From Verrucomicrobiota bacterium (GTDB lineage: Bacteria > Verrucomicrobiota > Kiritimatiellia > Kiritimatiellales > Pontiellaceae): a stretch of 12,274 nucleotides of DNA. Positions 1 through 6,056 of the stretch are shown here, piece by piece; positions within the stretch are counted from its first letter, which is position 1; each line of letters starts with the position of its first letter. Below the pieces are notes generated by a model. It had not been told where the DNA came from, did no database searches, and worked only from the letters and a program-made list of their open reading frames with translations. Location: contig DOEU01000025.1 in assembly GCA_003532555.1 (NCBI GenBank), positions 2,503-14,776 of the forward strand, in the 5' to 3' direction. Position numbers and translations under genes: made by a program.

Positions 1-1780
1 GAGCTATTTCTTCGATATTGATTTTGGATAGAGTGGGGGACTTACTATTCTCAAGTGATTTCAAAAGACGATGAACGACTAGATCCGGATATCGACGAAT
101 GGGTGATGTGAAATGGGTGTAATCTTCGAATGCCAATCCAAAATGACCCACTTGTCTGCTCGCGTATTCTGCTCTTTTAAAATTTTTGAGAATAGCGAGA
201 AGTGCTGTATATTCAGTGGGTGTATCTGCCGCCAATGCAAAGGCTTCATTGAGCTCTTTTCGTGATCGTGGCAAGACCGGAATTCCGAGCGCATTCAGCT
301 CCATTGCCATGCGAGTCCACTGTTCTTCATCCGGTTCTTCATGAATACGGTAGAGAGCTGGGCGATCAGTGGCTCCCATCAGTTTTTCTGCTACAACACG
401 GTTGGCAAGTAGCATGCAATCTTCAATTAATTGATAAGCCTCTTTTGCTTCCGATCGTGGAACCATTGAAGCTACTTCGCCTTTGTCGTTCAGCTTTATC
501 TCCACATCAGGTGTATTAATTTCTAACGATCCCTGTCTAATTCTACGTTGCCGAACTTCACGGATTAAGGGATATAGAATAGAAAGTTTTCTTTGAATCA
601 ATTCGGGAATATTATGATTATTTTCGCCTTCCATATGTTGCTGAACTTGCTGATAGGTCATTCGACATTGTGAGTGTATGACTGCTGGGAAGGTTTCATA
701 GCCAAGTCGCTCACCGTCTGCACTCAAATGAATATAGACCGAGTGGGTTAAATGATCACTATCTGGATTAAGACTACAAATTTTAGTGGTAAGTTCGGTC
801 GGGAGCATCATGACCACTCGGTCGACGAGATAGATGCTATTTCCACGCTTATAAGCTTCATGATCTAAAGCGCTCCCTGGCGTTACATAGGCAGAAACAT
901 CTGCAATATGAACTCCGAGTCTCCACCCCCCTTGTGGATGAGGATCTATAGAGATTGCATCATCAAAATCGCGCGCTGTTTCTGGATCAATCGTAAAGAT
1001 GACTTCTTTACGTAAATCACGACGGCCGTTCATTAAGTCATCAGAAATGGATTCTGGAATATTTTTTGCTTCATTCAAGACATGATCGGGAAAAGCTTCA
1101 TCTAATCCAGCTGCTTTTAAAAGGCAGTCTACATCTACACCCGGAGCCGACGCCTCTCCAAGATTTTCTTTAATTGTACCTGTAATAGATTGATAGGGAT
1201 CATTCCAAGGATCAAGTTCGACTAAAACTTTATGATCTTTTTCAATTTCTCCTGGATCTGCAATCCGCACCGAATTGGGAAAACCAGGATCATCAACGAT
1301 CACGAAACAATGGTAGCGCGCTTTTTTAAGAATCCCTACGACTTGATGTGTTCTTCGCTCAAGAATGCGAACTATCCGACCTTCACTTCGTTTTTGAGAC
1401 GACCCGGACGACCTCCCTCGACTCGACCATTCCGCATGATAACGTTCGGCTTCCACAATATCATTTGGATAAGCCAAGCCCATATTCTTTGCCCCAACAA
1501 ACAATTCATCTTCTTCTGAATTCAAAGGAATAAGAACGGCTCCGCCTTTAGGGAGCATTCTAACGGTCCCTTGAATGAGGTTGCTTTTATCCGGAAGGCC
1601 CCACCGGTTTTTGCGAAGGCATGAGATCAAGCCACGTTCTTCTAAATCCTGCAGAGCATGTCGTAATTCGGTGCGTTGCCCTTTGCTCGTGAAGCCAAGT
1701 GCTTGTGCTAACTCATGCTGCTTCATTGGGAGATAATTGGGTTGTTTGATAAAATCAATAATTTGGTTATCGAAGCTCAT
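1..1780 (-). CDS. rnr: Ribonuclease R (RNB-family 3'-5' exoribonuclease), C-terminus beyond window
   Basis: Processive 3'-5' exoribonuclease that degrades structured RNA in the cytoplasm. About 593 codons are visible, reading right to left from ATG 1780; the family is usually 700-800 aa, so the end of RNB and the C-terminal S1 domain lie off the left edge. The N-terminus (MSFDNQIIDFIKQPNY, then ELAQALG and ELRHALQDLEERGLI) is the winged-helix domain typical of RNase R rather than RNase II. The catalytic metal-binding cluster is IDPETARDFDDA, with D265, D271, D273 and D274. It is followed by GVHIADVSAYV and by an RNB family signature at residues 546-570 (HFGLAFEDYTHF then TSPIRRYPDLVVH). Both motifs are in one frame with no interruption. 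There is no strong Shine-Dalgarno; the start is set by the match to the family N-terminus. It is divergent from glgA with a 25-bp spacer. Identification is firm. Confidence 0.96.
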   Translation of the reverse strand, partial: MSFDNQIIDFIKQPNYLPMKQHELAQALGFTSKGQRTELRHALQDLEERGLISCLRKNRWGLPDKSNLIQGTVRMLPKGGAVLIPLNSEEDELFVGAKNMGLAYPNDIVEAERYHAEWSSRGRSSGSSQKRSEGRIVRILERRTHQVVGILKKARYHCFVIVDDPGFPNSVRIADPGEIEKDHKVLVELDPWNDPYQSITGTIKENLGEASAPGVDVDCLLKAAGLDEAFPDHVLNEAKNIPESISDDLMNGRRDLRKEVIFTIDPETARDFDDAISIDPHPQGGWRLGVHIADVSAYVTPGSALDHEAYKRGNSIYLVDRVVMMLPTELTTKICSLNPDSDHLTHSVYIHLSADGERLGYETFPAVIHSQCRMTYQQVQQHMEGENNHNIPELIQRKLSILYPLIREVRQRRIRQGSLEINTPDVEIKLNDKGEVASMVPRSEAKEAYQLIEDCMLLANRVVAEKLMGATDRPALYRIHEEPDEEQWTRMAMELNALGIPVLPRSRKELNEAFALAADTPTEYTALLAILKNFKRAEYASRQVGHFGLAFEDYTHFTSPIRRYPDLVVHRLLKSLENSKSPTLSKINIEEIA

Positions 1781-1792
1781 GAAGATTTTCTG

Positions 1793-1804
1793 TAATTATA
1801 ATTA
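1793..1804. promoter_or_regulatory. AT palindrome with TATAAT on both strands between rnr and glgA
   Basis: TAATTATAATTA is a perfect 12-bp inverted repeat filling half of the 25-bp spacer between two divergent start codons. It contains TATAAT on the + strand (1797-1802) and TATAAT on the - strand (1800-1795). As a -10 element it would start the rnr message only about 8 nt before its ATG, and the glgA message at about its GTG, giving very short or leaderless mRNAs. The -35 matches at the expected distance are poor on both sides (AGCTCA at 1774-1779 for glgA, TGCAAA at 1823-1818 for rnr). The palindrome is seen; the promoter role is inferred. Confidence 0.4.
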
Positions 1805-1805
1805 T

Positions 1806-3251
1806 GTGAGAATTCTATTTGCAAGTAGCGAAATTATACCATTTGCATCAACAGGGGGTCTAGGAGATGTTTGTGCAGCTTTACCAAAAGCATTGACAAA
1901 ATTAGGCATAGAAATCTTTCGAATTATGCCACTGTATCGCGTGATTGATCGAGATCGGTATCAGATCCAGCCAATGGATCTTGTTCTTCAGATTCCTATT
2001 GGAAGAACCGTCTATGAAGGTCGTCTGTTTAAGCAGGAATATGATGGTGTTATAACGTTCTACATTTACTGTCCCGAATACTTTGATCGTGATGGGATTT
2101 ATGGAGATTCTTATCAAGAGTATAATGATAACTTCGAACGTTTTCTTTTCTTTCAGAAAGCAATTGTTGCTGTGATTGATATGCTTGATCTACATCCTCA
2201 GATAGTTCACTGCAACGATTGGCATACAGGATTACTTCCATTGCTACTTAAATATGGAATCGATGGAACACCTCGATTTGGCTCAGAAAAAACCGTTATG
2301 ACGATTCATAATTTAGCTCATCAAGGTTGGGCTCATGCTGAAAAGTTTTCACTTACTCAACTGCCATCTGTATGTTTTCATTGGAAATTACTCGAGTTTT
2401 TTGGGGAGATTAATTCACTGAAAGGAGGCGTAGTAAGCGCTGATGCAATTACCACAGTAAGCCCAACATATGCCAATGAAATTTTACACCCCGATTTTGG
2501 AAATCAGTTGGAAGGGGTTCTTCGTGAACGTAAAAATTCGTTACATGGTATTTTAAATGGAGTTGATTATTCGAGATGGAATACGACCACTGATCCATAT
2601 ATTGAATCCTCTTTTGATATAGGTGACTTAACAGGTAAAATCAACTGTAAAAAAAAGGTGCAAGAATATTTCGGTCTACCGCTTGAGCCCAAAGCTCCGC
2701 TATTTTGTATGATTTCTCGGTTAACACATCAGAAGGGGTTCGATTTAATCGATGAAACGATTAAATCCATCATGGAGTTGGATGCACAGTGGATTTTTCT
2801 CGGAAGTGGAGATAAGCACTATGAGCAGAAATTGAAAAAATGGGCGGAACGTTGGCCTGAAAAAATAGCCGTTTCAATTAACTATTCAAGTGAACTAGCC
2901 CATCAGTTATTTGCCGGATCGGACATCTTTTTGATGCCCTCTATTTTTGAACCCTGCGGGCAAAGTCAAATTTATAGCATGCGGTATGGAACTATCCCGT
3001 TAGCACATGCAGTAGGCGGTTTGGTTGATACAATACAACCCTATCCAAAGAGAGGCAGCACTGGCTTTTTATTCAAGCCTTTCACTGCAGATGCCTTTGT
3101 TTCTGTAGTTCAATATGCCATTGATACGTTCTATCAACCCCGTCGCTGGAAACCTTTAATGAAACGTGCTATGCGAGCTAATTTTTCAGATTATAACATG
3201 GCAAAGGGATATTTAGATGTATATCAAGGTCTCATTGATAGGCTGGATTAA
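1806..3251 (+). CDS. glgA: Glycogen/starch synthase, GT5 family
   Basis: Transfers glucose from a nucleotide sugar (ADP-glucose in most bacteria) to the non-reducing end of alpha-1,4-glucan; cytoplasmic, GT-B fold. GTG 1806 is chosen because translation then opens VRILFASSEIIPF, matching the usual family start, and gives 481 aa, the normal GlgA length. ATG 1779 (9 codons earlier) and ATG 1737 would overlap the start of rnr and add atypical residues. Visible motifs: STGGLGDV (15-22) in the nucleotide-sugar loop, HCNDWHTGL with H140, the HNLAHQG loop, GGVVSADAITTVSPTYA, the donor-site segment ISRLTHQKG with R305 and K310, and FEPCG with catalytic-site E382. Position 15, lysine (KTGGL) in the E. 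coli enzyme, is serine here. No Shine-Dalgarno precedes GTG. No other glycogen gene is in the window. Function is firm; the exact start is less so. Confidence 0.94.
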   Translation: MRILFASSEIIPFASTGGLGDVCAALPKALTKLGIEIFRIMPLYRVIDRDRYQIQPMDLVLQIPIGRTVYEGRLFKQEYDGVITFYIYCPEYFDRDGIYGDSYQEYNDNFERFLFFQKAIVAVIDMLDLHPQIVHCNDWHTGLLPLLLKYGIDGTPRFGSEKTVMTIHNLAHQGWAHAEKFSLTQLPSVCFHWKLLEFFGEINSLKGGVVSADAITTVSPTYANEILHPDFGNQLEGVLRERKNSLHGILNGVDYSRWNTTTDPYIESSFDIGDLTGKINCKKKVQEYFGLPLEPKAPLFCMISRLTHQKGFDLIDETIKSIMELDAQWIFLGSGDKHYEQKLKKWAERWPEKIAVSINYSSELAHQLFAGSDIFLMPSIFEPCGQSQIYSMRYGTIPLAHAVGGLVDTIQPYPKRGSTGFLFKPFTADAFVSVVQYAIDTFYQPRRWKPLMKRAMRANFSDYNMAKGYLDVYQGLIDRLD

Positions 3252-3407
3252 GAAATATAAGTAACCGGTTCATTTACGCATTGGTTCATGGGGCGAAGGC
3301 GTAGCTATCCTATTTGATGTAATTGTAGTAGTAGGCAACCTTTCACAGTATACAAAGACGATTATTCGACATATTAAGAAAACTTCGAGACATTCTAACG
3401 GTAGTGA
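3252..3407. other. Convergent intergenic gap glgA/sodN, no clear terminator
   Basis: 156 bp between the stop codons of two converging genes. I looked for a GC-rich hairpin followed by a T run on either strand and found none. The only structure is an 8-bp palindrome AACCGGTT (3263-3270) and a short direct repeat GGTTCAT (3267-3273 and 3283-3289). No reading frame of note. Confidence 0.5.
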
Positions 3408-3842
3408 TTAATGCTCGTGAGATTCGCCTAGATACGCATGCTCAAAGGCATGTATCAAATCATTGAGTTTGGCAACATGTACAAGATCAGCTTCTTGTTT
3501 TACTTTCATTGAAGTAACGAGGAGCTCATGTAACAACGCTAGTTTCTTTGCATATTCAGGCATTCCTGGCTTGATGCGTTGCGCCATATAGTAATACGTC
3601 ACAATCTCACTCAATTTATCGGCATGAATTTCTTTGTTCATCACCCAACGAACTGATTGGTTATCATTAGGGTTATCAGCTAATTTTTTAATACTTTTCT
3701 CAATTGTCACCACATGTTCTTTCATTTGGTGAATTCGCATTAAATCATCATAAATTCCGCATGGAATCTGACAATGTCCAAGACTTATTTGAATGTTCGA
3801 TAATACACAGATACTCAGTATAACTAGATATTTCATATTCAT
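3408..3842 (-). CDS. sodN: Nickel-type superoxide dismutase with N-terminal export signal
   Basis: Dismutes superoxide using Ni held by an N-terminal hook. The hook is present intact: His-Cys-x-x-Pro-Cys-Gly-x-Tyr as HCQIPCGIYDD, giving mature H1, C2, C6 and Y9. In front lies a 22-residue Sec-type signal peptide: MNMK, a hydrophobic core YLVILSICVL, then SNIQISLG with Ser at -3 and Gly at -1. The predicted cut falls exactly before H1, leaving a mature protein of 122 aa, the usual NiSOD size. The body fits the all-alpha NiSOD fold: EHVVTIEKSIKKL, then VRWVMNKEIHADKL and a YYYMAQRIK helix. ATG 3842 has AAGGAG 6 nt upstream. It lies 36 bp downstream of the cyclo-ligase gene on the same strand. 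The usual maturation peptidase gene sodX is not nearby. Family call is firm; export is a strong inference. Confidence 0.93.
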   Translation of the reverse strand: MNMKYLVILSICVLSNIQISLGHCQIPCGIYDDLMRIHQMKEHVVTIEKSIKKLADNPNDNQSVRWVMNKEIHADKLSEIVTYYYMAQRIKPGMPEYAKKLALLHELLVTSMKVKQEADLVHVAKLNDLIHAFEHAYLGESHEH

Positions 3843-3878
3843 ATAATGCTCCTTATATTAATTGGTAAAACAGATTGT

Positions 3879-4445
3879 TTAATTCTCGCTACACTCTTTC
3901 ATTCCATCCTTTTCATTACAAACCCAATGTACCCGCTGATCCCAGATATCATGAGGTAAATTCGGTATAATCCGGGATTGGTTACATATACCAATCCGAA
4001 TTCCACGATATGTCGAAAAAATCCGATCATAAAACCCACCACCTCGGCCTAAACGAACTCCTGTCGAATCAAAGGCCAATCCGGGTGCTAGGATAGCTTG
4101 TATCTGATTAAGATTTATCGGGGCGCCGAGCGGTTCAGGCAGATTAAATTTACCTATTTGCAGAATGGAGTTAGGTTTAATTTCACTAAAAGAATAGCCC
4201 ATATCTACTTTGATATATTTGGGTGCATATACACTTCGTCCTTGCGCAAGTAAGCGATCTGCAAATGAGCTTAAGTTAATTTCATTCGGCATTGCCATGT
4301 AGATGCCCACATGCTGAATATCCCTCGAGTCGAACCAGCTCGATAAATAAGAGCAGATGCTTTTACTTTCTATCTCTAAATCCGATGGATTGCATGCAGA
4401 TTGTAAGGATTTTATTTTAGTTCTAAGTTCAGATTTTAACATCAT
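3879..4445 (-). CDS. ygfA: 5-formyltetrahydrofolate cyclo-ligase
   Basis: Converts 5-formyl-THF to 5,10-methenyl-THF with ATP, returning stored folate to one-carbon metabolism; cytoplasmic, about 188 aa, normal length. Diagnostic sequence: the C-terminal motif PGLAFDSTGVRLGRGGGFYDR region (about residues 121-141, counted from the first ATG), the substrate-side YMAMPNEINL segment near 50-59, and GICNQSR...LPHDIWDQRVHWVCNE near the end. The start is TTG-ATG-ATG-TTA; ATG 4445 is preferred, with AAAGG 9 nt upstream, although TTG 4448 or ATG 4442 are possible. ATG 4445 shares its A with the TGA of a small upstream frame (TGATG overlap), suggesting translational coupling. Its placement after a 6S RNA is the classic ssrS-ygfA linkage; sodN follows. 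Also called fau. Confidence 0.95.
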   Translation of the reverse strand: MMLKSELRTKIKSLQSACNPSDLEIESKSICSYLSSWFDSRDIQHVGIYMAMPNEINLSSFADRLLAQGRSVYAPKYIKVDMGYSFSEIKPNSILQIGKFNLPEPLGAPINLNQIQAILAPGLAFDSTGVRLGRGGGFYDRIFSTYRGIRIGICNQSRIIPNLPHDIWDQRVHWVCNEKDGMKECSEN

Positions 4446-4596
4446 CAAGATAAACCTTTACGTTTTTCCAACTCGTCTAACCGTTTCTTAATTGTTCTTT
4501 CAAATTTTGAGGGCACATTCGAGGAGAAAGGGGAACGGTATATGCTAAAGATTTCGGTTTTGATAGGAGCGTTTCAGATAAGCTAAATAAATTCAT
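4445..4596 (-). other. Possible small protein gene read in two frames, between 6S RNA and ygfA
   Basis: ATG 4596 opens 39 codons (begins MNLFSLSETL, ends KEQLRNG) and stops at TAG 4479-4477. A second frame, open from just after TGA 4576-4574, has no ATG but reads like a real protein tail: TEIFSIYRSPFSSNVPSKFE then RTIKKRLDELEKRKGLS, ending in TGA 4447-4445, which overlaps the ygfA start. Joining frame one to frame two needs a single -1 shift (or one missing base) between about 4574 and 4480 and would give a basic protein of about 50 aa. I find no canonical X-XXY-YYZ slip site. It may be a frameshifted gene, a sequencing indel, a recoded gene or chance. AGAAAG lies 4 nt before ATG 4596. I do not recognise the family. 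Confidence 0.3.
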
Positions 4597-4868: not shown

Positions 4869-5510
4869 TTATAGTTGTCTCATCTTAGAGAGTCTCGAAA
4901 TAATTCGGATCGCGCAGGCTGTTTTATCTAATTGCTTCCAATTAACGCTCCCGTTTTCATCAATCCATTTATAGGACGCGGCCATTTTTCCAATCGCTTC
5001 AGGTGAGTTTAGTACAATGGCATTCAAGTTTTTTTCTATCCGTTTCTGTATAGCTTTTTGCTCTGCATCATGTGTTTGAAGAGCAAATCCAATCGTTATT
5101 TGGTTCTTCTTTTTTTTTCTACTTAAATACGCCGCAATGTCAACCGTTGGTGCTAGTGATAGATTAATTGGGTTTTGTTCATGGTCGTATTTTAGAGCCG
5201 AAGGCTGCACTGGGGTATAATCAGCAACAGCAGCGGCAAAAAGAACTACATCGGCATGGACGAACCATTTTCTCGCTTCATGAAGCATTTCTGAAGCGCT
5301 TATCACTTTATGAATACGGCTTTGATCATCGAGTTCTGGAAGTTCTGAAGGGTGAACTGGTCCCGTAATAAAATCAATATCCCATTTTTTGGAGCGAGCT
5401 GCATTTGCTAATGCGGCACCCATTTTACCGCTAGATGCATTGCCTATAAATCGAACAGGATCAAGATATTCATGCGTCGGACCAGAAAGAATGAGTATAC
5501 GCCGACTCAT
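4869..5510 (-). CDS. coaB: Phosphopantothenate-cysteine ligase (stand-alone CoaB)
   Basis: Second step of CoA synthesis from phosphopantothenate: nucleotide-activated joining to cysteine, making 4'-phosphopantothenoylcysteine. The 213 residues match the C-terminal half of bifunctional Dfp/CoaBC: SGPTHEYLDPVRFIGNASSG (residues 9-28, with N24 at the conserved Asn of GNxSSG), AAAVADYTP (92-100), then K107 as the likely equivalent of the catalytic lysine, and GFALQTHDAEQKAIQKRIEK followed by NLNAIVLN. It starts 3 nt after the coaC stop (TGA-TTT-ATG) with no independent ribosome site, so translation is probably coupled. The catalytic-lysine region (SALKYDHEQ) lacks the double-lysine KIKK found in E. 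coli. Ligase identity is secure; NTP preference cannot be read. Confidence 0.92.
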   Translation of the reverse strand: MSRRILILSGPTHEYLDPVRFIGNASSGKMGAALANAARSKKWDIDFITGPVHPSELPELDDQSRIHKVISASEMLHEARKWFVHADVVLFAAAVADYTPVQPSALKYDHEQNPINLSLAPTVDIAAYLSRKKKKNQITIGFALQTHDAEQKAIQKRIEKNLNAIVLNSPEAIGKMAASYKWIDENGSVNWKQLDKTACAIRIISRLSKMRQL

Positions 5511-5513
5511 AAA

Positions 5514-6056
5514 TCAGCTTTTTTGTTGAAGAATTTTTTCAACAATTATCTCAGTATCTGCTAAACGCCCGATCCCCATGGAGCCGCAGGCTAAGCGACC
5601 GGATTCAGGACCTACAGCAATCCAACCATCTTCTTTCAACTGCTCGCAATTTCGTTGGACGGAAACTTGCTTCCACATGTGCGTATTCATAGCTGGGCAA
5701 TATAAACGTTTACAATCTGCTTTTAATGAGAGAACCCCGTTTGAAACAGGGTCTGTTCCTAATCCATGTGCAATCGATCCAATTGTATTTGCGGTTGCCG
5801 GTATAAGTACGAAGAGATCGACTTTCGTTGAAGGATAAAGGTGAGCATATGTTTGATCGAGCGAATCCTGAGAAAGTTGTTCTTGCGTTTGAGTCGGTCG
5901 ACCGGTCAGTGCGCTGAAAGTTAGAGCTGTTATAAAGCGCTCTGCTTGAGGTGTCATACATACATCTACCTCACAACCAGCTTGAACCAATTTGCTGACC
6001 ACTTCAGCTGCTTTATATGCGGCAATTCCTCCGCAAACTCCAATGAGAACTTTCAT
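5514..6056 (-). CDS. coaC: Phosphopantothenoylcysteine decarboxylase (stand-alone CoaC)
   Basis: FMN-dependent flavoprotein of the HFCD family that decarboxylates 4'-phosphopantothenoylcysteine to 4'-phosphopantetheine, directly after the CoaB reaction. In order: GVCGGIAAYKAAEVV (6-20) nucleotide loop; H72 in YAHLYPS, at the place of the catalytic histidine; FMN-binding PATANTIGSIAHGLG (86-100); PAMNTHMW (121-128), the substrate clamp with conserved Asn; and ACGSMGIGRLAD (156-167), with C157 the proton-donor cysteine of the mobile flap. 180 aa is right for a CoaC domain alone. It sits 20 bp after frr and 3 nt before coaB, in the same order as the halves of fused CoaBC. HFCD relatives such as peptide decarboxylases share the fold, but the adjacent coaB settles the role. 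Confidence 0.93.
   Translation of the reverse strand: MKVLIGVCGGIAAYKAAEVVSKLVQAGCEVDVCMTPQAERFITALTFSALTGRPTQTQEQLSQDSLDQTYAHLYPSTKVDLFVLIPATANTIGSIAHGLGTDPVSNGVLSLKADCKRLYCPAMNTHMWKQVSVQRNCEQLKEDGWIAVGPESGRLACGSMGIGRLADTEIIVEKILQQKS

What the first reader, a model, noticed from the sequence alone, without database searches (positions are those of the whole stretch)
3408..3842. Ni-SOD whose active site is uncovered by signal-peptide cleavage
The Ni hook needs a free N-terminal His1. In the well-studied Streptomyces enzyme a short pro-segment is removed by a dedicated peptidase (SodX), usually encoded next door. Here no such gene is adjacent; instead a 22-residue Sec-type signal with Ser(-3)-Leu-Gly(-1) ends exactly at His-Cys-Gln-Ile-Pro-Cys. 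Signal peptidase alone could therefore both export the enzyme and create its metal site, and nickel would have to be loaded outside the cytoplasm. Signal and hook are seen; the one-step maturation is inference.
Basis: partly seen in the sequence, partly recalled or inferred. Interest (0 to 1): 0.72.

Follow-up and report, generated by a model that had tools for sequence, protein, structure and literature searches.

The report
Exported nickel superoxide dismutase without SodX
This bacterial gene encodes a nickel enzyme that destroys superoxide, and its metal-binding end appears to be laid bare simply by cutting off the export signal, as in a whole branch of the family that seems to do without the dedicated cutting enzyme of its better-known cousins.

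Summary
Window 3408-3842 (-) encodes a 144-residue Ni-SOD whose 22-residue Sec-like leader ends Ser-Leu-Gly directly before His-Cys-Gln-Ile-Pro-Cys. No sodX is adjacent, and the sodX model finds nothing above its cut-off in the (63% complete) own genome or in 71 sodN-bearing genomes of the phylum; an ordinary signal peptidase I gene is present. In a hook-pattern sample of 118 loci from named genomes, 99 have a short, non-export pro-segment (SodX-like gene within 2.5 kb of 61 of the 63 with room) and 19 an export leader (0 of 13 with room). A tree made without the hook separates the classes by one branch; hook residues 3 and 11 mark them. SodX is itself of signal-peptidase family S26. Cleavage, nickel binding and activity outside the cytoplasm are inferred. 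A 2025 paper used a Ni-SOD signal peptide as bait, so exported Ni-SODs are in print; I found no description of the SodX-free split in the papers I could search.

The parts
3408..3842 (-). sodN-like CDS, 144 aa plus stop
   Evidence: ORF; PF09055 90.8 bits; TIGR02753 30.2 bits, under its cut-off of 90
3777..3842 (-). Sec-type signal peptide, residues 1-22, ending Ser20-Leu21-Gly22
   Evidence: Lys4, hydrophobic core 6-14, (-3,-1) site after 22; conservation
3750..3776 (-). Ni-hook HCQIPCGIY, residues 23-31 (mature 1-9), first residues of the predicted mature protein
   Evidence: H1, C2, P5, C6, G7 invariant in both alignments
3411..3776 (-). predicted mature protein, 122 residues, four-helix bundle; its only two cysteines are those of the hook (by eye)
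   Evidence: model, mean pLDDT 90.7; best matches Ni-SOD
3849..3854 (-). ribosome-binding site AAGGAG, 6 nt before the ATG
   Evidence: read by eye
3879..4448 (-). upstream neighbour, 5-formyltetrahydrofolate cyclo-ligase, 36 nt from sodN on the same strand; no sodX
   Evidence: PF01812

Best explanation
The gene encodes a nickel superoxide dismutase made as a preprotein. The leader sends it through the Sec translocon; signal peptidase I (LepB, which this genome has) cuts after Gly22 and so frees the amino group and side chain of His1, completing the hook ligands His1, Cys2 and Cys6. Nickel is then bound in the periplasm and the enzyme removes superoxide there. No SodX is needed because the general signal peptidase does at the membrane what SodX, a small member of the same S26 peptidase family, does in the cytoplasm for the other branch. 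Shown by computation: leader, hook, fold, absence of sodX hits, presence of LepB, family-wide pattern. Inferred: actual cleavage, location, nickel, activity.
For: Leader ends at the hook in 116 of 116 full-leader homologs and in 69 of 69 phylum genes with a readable N-terminus. sodX model over cut-off in 0 of 71 phylum genomes and 0 of 19 export-type genomes elsewhere. Class contrast in 118 loci: SodX-like ORF near 61 of 63 pro-type but 0 of 13 export-type loci with room. One branch with SH-aLRT 100 separates 98 pro-type from 73 export-type rows with hook columns left out. LepB present. SodX matches Pfam S26, and both leader kinds end in a small residue before His. Model fits solved Ni-SODs best. 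Cu/Zn-SOD absent from 71 of 71, which leaves the envelope role open.
Against: No protein-level evidence. One of 69 phylum genes, L228, has Pro at -1, a poor signal-peptidase site. The score for the TIGR02753 Ni-SOD equivalog is far under its cut-off. The two hook thiols would have to stay reduced outside the cytoplasm. Absence of DsbB and VKOR hits in 67 of 71 genomes would help, but it is phylum-wide and not linked to sodN.
Confidence: 0.82

Rival explanations
1. The leader is cut by signal peptidase at another residue and a second protease or aminopeptidase trims to His1.
For: The (-3,-1) rule alone also allows a cut after Ser15.
Confidence: 0.08
2. A SodX-like protease exists in these genomes but is too divergent or lies in unassembled sequence.
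For: The own genome is 63% complete; 24 of 71 genomes have weak partial hits, best 31.9 bits; TIGR02754 is strict, passing only 6 of 31 pro-type genomes given to it.
Against: Hits spanning at least 70 of 90 model positions occur in 24 of 31 pro-type but 0 of 19 export-type and 0 of 71 phylum genomes, by my reading of the tables. A local SodX profile finds none beside 45 phylum loci or 19 export-type loci.
Confidence: 0.07
3. The hydrophobic segment is not cut and anchors the protein in the membrane.
For: Hydrophobicity alone does not prove cleavage.
Against: The conserved small residue at -1; an uncut leader would block the N-terminal amine that Ni-SODs need.
Confidence: 0.03
4. The exported branch binds another metal or acts as a metal scavenger rather than a superoxide dismutase.
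For: Only 15-25% identity to classical Ni-SODs; hook residue 3 is Gln or Glu, not Asp; exported N-terminal-His proteins that capture metal are reported (PMC12537917, passages).
Against: H1, C2, P5, C6, G7 and the equivalents of Tyr62 are kept; profile of this branch alone has solved Ni-SODs as its best PDB hits, E 8.6e-4.
Confidence: 0.12

Closest known systems
Streptomyces SodN with SodX (sodN SCO5254, sodX SCO5255; PMC3919588, passages)
   Same: Same fold family, hook HCxxPCGxY, N-terminal pro-region removed to free His1
   Different: No SodX; hydrophobic export leader instead of a short pro-segment; Gln3 and Asp11 instead of Asp3 and Pro11
Exported Ni-SOD of Roseiconus lacunae used as bait in signal strapping (PMC12537917: abstract, introduction and passages seen)
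   Same: Sod_Ni protein with a signal peptide followed by His; the search there retrieved many Ni-SODs
   Different: In the parts I saw, maturation without SodX and the split of the family are not discussed
LPMO and CopC type metal sites exposed by signal-peptide cleavage (PMC12537917, introduction)
   Same: His1 and free amine created by export
   Different: Other folds and copper; no cysteine hook
Ubiquitin-NiSOD fusions of algae (PMC6332867, passages)
   Same: A general N-terminal module stands where SodX-type processing would otherwise act
   Different: Ubiquitin instead of a signal peptide; that its removal frees His1 is my inference

Membership tests
Ni-SOD family (Pfam Sod_Ni) | Pfam match over the curated cut-off | tested here: met
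   90.8 bits, cut-off 25
Ni-SOD family (Pfam Sod_Ni) | Hook ligands His1, Cys2, Cys6 with Pro5 and Tyr9 | tested here: met
   position 9 is Tyr in the window, Phe in 11 of 70 phylum rows (70 rows are 69 genes)
Ni-SOD family (Pfam Sod_Ni) | Four-helix bundle like solved Ni-SODs | tested here: met
Ni-SOD family (Pfam Sod_Ni) | Nickel bound and superoxide dismuted | not testable with these tools
   needs protein
Classical sodN equivalog (TIGR02753) | Score of at least 90 bits | tested here: not met
   30.2 bits
SodX-dependent Ni-SOD | sodX gene nearby or in the genome | tested here: not met
   own genome incomplete
Sec / signal peptidase I substrates | Positive n-region, hydrophobic core, small residues at -3 and -1 | tested here: met
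   conserved
Sec / signal peptidase I substrates | Demonstrated cleavage and export | not testable with these tools
   needs protein
Lipoproteins (signal peptidase II) | Lipobox with Cys directly after the cut | tested here: not met
   Cys24 is preceded by His23, kept in 116 of 116 full-leader homologs; a lipobox needs a small residue there (rule recalled)
Twin-arginine (Tat) substrates | RR motif in the leader | tested here: not met
   none in the window leader; RR in 2 of 116 homolog leaders

The most novel reading that the evidence does not exclude
The Ni-SOD family split once into two maturation lineages that do not mix in this sample: a cytoplasmic one clipped by its own small S26 peptidase, SodX, and an envelope one clipped by the general S26 signal peptidase. 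The hook itself records the route (Asp3/Pro11 versus Gln or Glu3/Asp11), and the export lineage appears only in two-membrane phyla, so a nickel enzyme is assembled outside the cytoplasm with no dedicated maturation factor.
Probability: 0.6. Interest if true: 0.62.

Novelty: new variant of a known kind. Interest (0 to 1): 0.48.

Why it matters
If true, a nickel metal site is built by the general export machinery alone, and the leader and two hook residues predict where a Ni-SOD works. [quoted passage not shown] It also offers a candidate envelope superoxide dismutase for bacteria in which no Cu/Zn-SOD was found (0 of 71), and a test of how nickel reaches a site outside the cytoplasm.

Tried and rejected
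Dedicated neighbour: clustering the ORFs within 3 kb of 63 export-type loci gave no recurrent metal-handling gene that I recognised; the largest cluster (45 loci) is antisense reading of sodN itself, and recurrent true neighbours in up to 15 loci look like housekeeping genes, named by eye except glgA.

Disulfide machinery as an explanation of why free thiols could survive: DsbB in 1 of 71 and VKOR in 4 of 71 sodN genomes, but 2 of 387 and 20 of 387 in the phylum draw. VKOR is in 4 of 62 sodN genomes against 16 of 325 others, so there is no link to sodN. Other disulfide systems were not searched.

Replacement of cytoplasmic SOD: rejected as general, since 42 of 71 sodN genomes also have Fe/Mn-SOD; the own incomplete genome shows none.

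Single-sequence search of the PDB gave 0 hits. The profile A1 contains three classical Ni-SODs, so its strong hits are partly by construction; A2, of this branch alone, is the fair test.

Limits. Class was set by hook residue 3. Leader hydrophobicity agrees but just overlaps (export-type 2.11-3.59, pro-type up to 2.14), and three phylum leaders (L009, L040, L219) fall under 2.0. The local SodX profile was built from 16 SodX sequences of pro-type genomes, so hits beside those loci are by construction. The Fisher value of 7e-13 ignores relatedness. The tree is a quick one on 107 columns, SH-aLRT only and unrooted, made when 44 of the 69 readable phylum genes were at hand.

Full report

Host. The window lies in an unnamed 1.08 Mb assembly, 63% complete. 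A homolog at 84% identity is named Kiritimatiellaceae, so a Kiritimatiellota-like bacterium is likely. Neighbours are ordinary: glycogen synthase, 5-FTHF cyclo-ligase, CoaB and CoaC, and MutS by Pfam.

Is the leader real? In the 120 listed homologs of 2636 found the hook follows the leader directly; 116 have a leader of 18 residues or more, and all 116 have Lys or Arg in the first eight residues and A, G or S at -1; 114 have no acidic residue and 114 a hydrophobic core of mean 2.0 or more. Across the phylum, 62 of 387 genomes drawn have a Sod_Ni gene, and nine more came from the search of close relatives, 71 in all. I could read 69 of the 71 N-termini; two are cut by contig ends. All 69 have a hydrophobic leader directly before His-Cys. 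At -1, 68 have A, G or S and one (L228) has Pro. One search counts 70 rows because L018 and L231 are one gene.

Is SodX missing? The sodX model gives 12.7 bits (cut-off 63.25) in the own genome, on an ORF that is signal peptidase I. In the 71 genomes none passes the cut-off; 24 have weak partial matches, best 31.9 bits. As a positive control I gave the same model 50 named-source genomes: it passes in 6, all pro-type, and by my reading spans at least 70 of 90 positions in 24 of 31 pro-type and 0 of 19 export-type genomes. So the cut-off is strict, but the contrast does not depend on it.

The wider pattern. Ninety-nine have a short leader without an export core and a hook of the form HCD.PCG.YDP (97 Asp3/Pro11, one His3/Pro11, one Asp3/Thr11); nineteen have an export leader and HC[EQ].PCG.YDD. 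A SodX-like ORF lies within 2.5 kb in 90 of 99 against 0 of 19; where both flanks are at least 1.5 kb, 61 of 63 against 0 of 13. The profile for that was trained on 16 SodX sequences from pro-type genomes. None was found beside the 45 phylum loci then held, with flanks of up to 1.5 kb. A tree of 171 SodN rows with the hook left out separates 98 pro-type from 73 export-type rows by one branch, SH-aLRT 100; it is unrooted. Within the export branch the phyla are mixed, as expected of gene transfer, yet the leader type is kept. The phyla named for 18 of the 19 export-type loci all have two membranes (general knowledge); one has no phylum in its record. The pro-type set also includes a few two-membrane bacteria (Campylobacterota 2, Pseudomonadota 1).

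Mechanism. Three SodX sequences tested match Pfam S26, the signal-peptidase family. Pro-type leaders end in A, S or G before His (97, 1 and 1 of 99) with V, A or G at -3, much like the export leaders. So one kind of peptidase appears to make the same cut in both lineages: a small dedicated one in the cytoplasm, the general one at the membrane. I therefore take one-step maturation by signal peptidase I as most likely. Nickel loading outside the cytoplasm follows if Sec exports the chain unfolded, which is established for Sec substrates (recalled) but not shown here.

Context of function. None of the 71 genomes has a Cu/Zn-SOD hit (4 of 14 control genomes do), while 42 have Fe/Mn-SOD. An envelope role beside a cytoplasmic SOD fits. 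A possible weakness, oxidation of the hook thiols, could not be settled: DsbB and VKOR are rare here, but throughout the phylum and not in relation to sodN.

What is known. PMC12537917 (abstract, introduction and passages seen) used the signal peptide of a Roseiconus Sod_Ni with an added His as bait and retrieved many Ni-SODs; so exported Ni-SODs are in print. PMC3919588 (passages) names SodX as the cognate peptidase. PMC8346466 (passages) calls cyanobacterial Ni-SOD cytoplasmic and treats lack of sodX as possible lack of function. PMC6332867 (passages) describes ubiquitin-NiSOD fusions. I did not find the split between SodX-linked and export-leader Ni-SODs stated in seven searches of the held library; key older surveys, such as Dupont 2008, are not held and may mention it.

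Noticed in passing
window 4869-6056 (-): CoaB-like (DFP, 213 aa) and CoaC-like (Flavoprotein, 180 aa) are two separate adjacent ORFs rather than one CoaBC protein.
   Followed up: no
   Followed up: no
L059, L063, L068, L079, L092, L129: sodN with a SodX-like gene nearby in records titled Micrarchaeota, Euryarchaeota, Aenigmatarchaeota and Woesearchaeota, although a 2021 paper calls NiSOD restricted to bacteria (PMC8346466, passages).
   Followed up: partly
phylum draw of 387 genomes: DsbB is found in 2 and VKOR in 20 of 387 genomes, so the usual disulfide-forming pairs seem rare in this phylum.
   Followed up: partly
L111, L157, L163: Three contigs titled Bifidobacterium breve MAGs carry pro-type sodN, unexpected for that species; the labels may be wrong.
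   Followed up: no
window 1737-3842 and related loci: Recurrent neighbours of sodN within 3 kb are shared by up to 15 of 63 export-type loci; one cluster looks like glycogen synthase (glgA), which also adjoins sodN in the window (cluster names by eye).
   Followed up: partly
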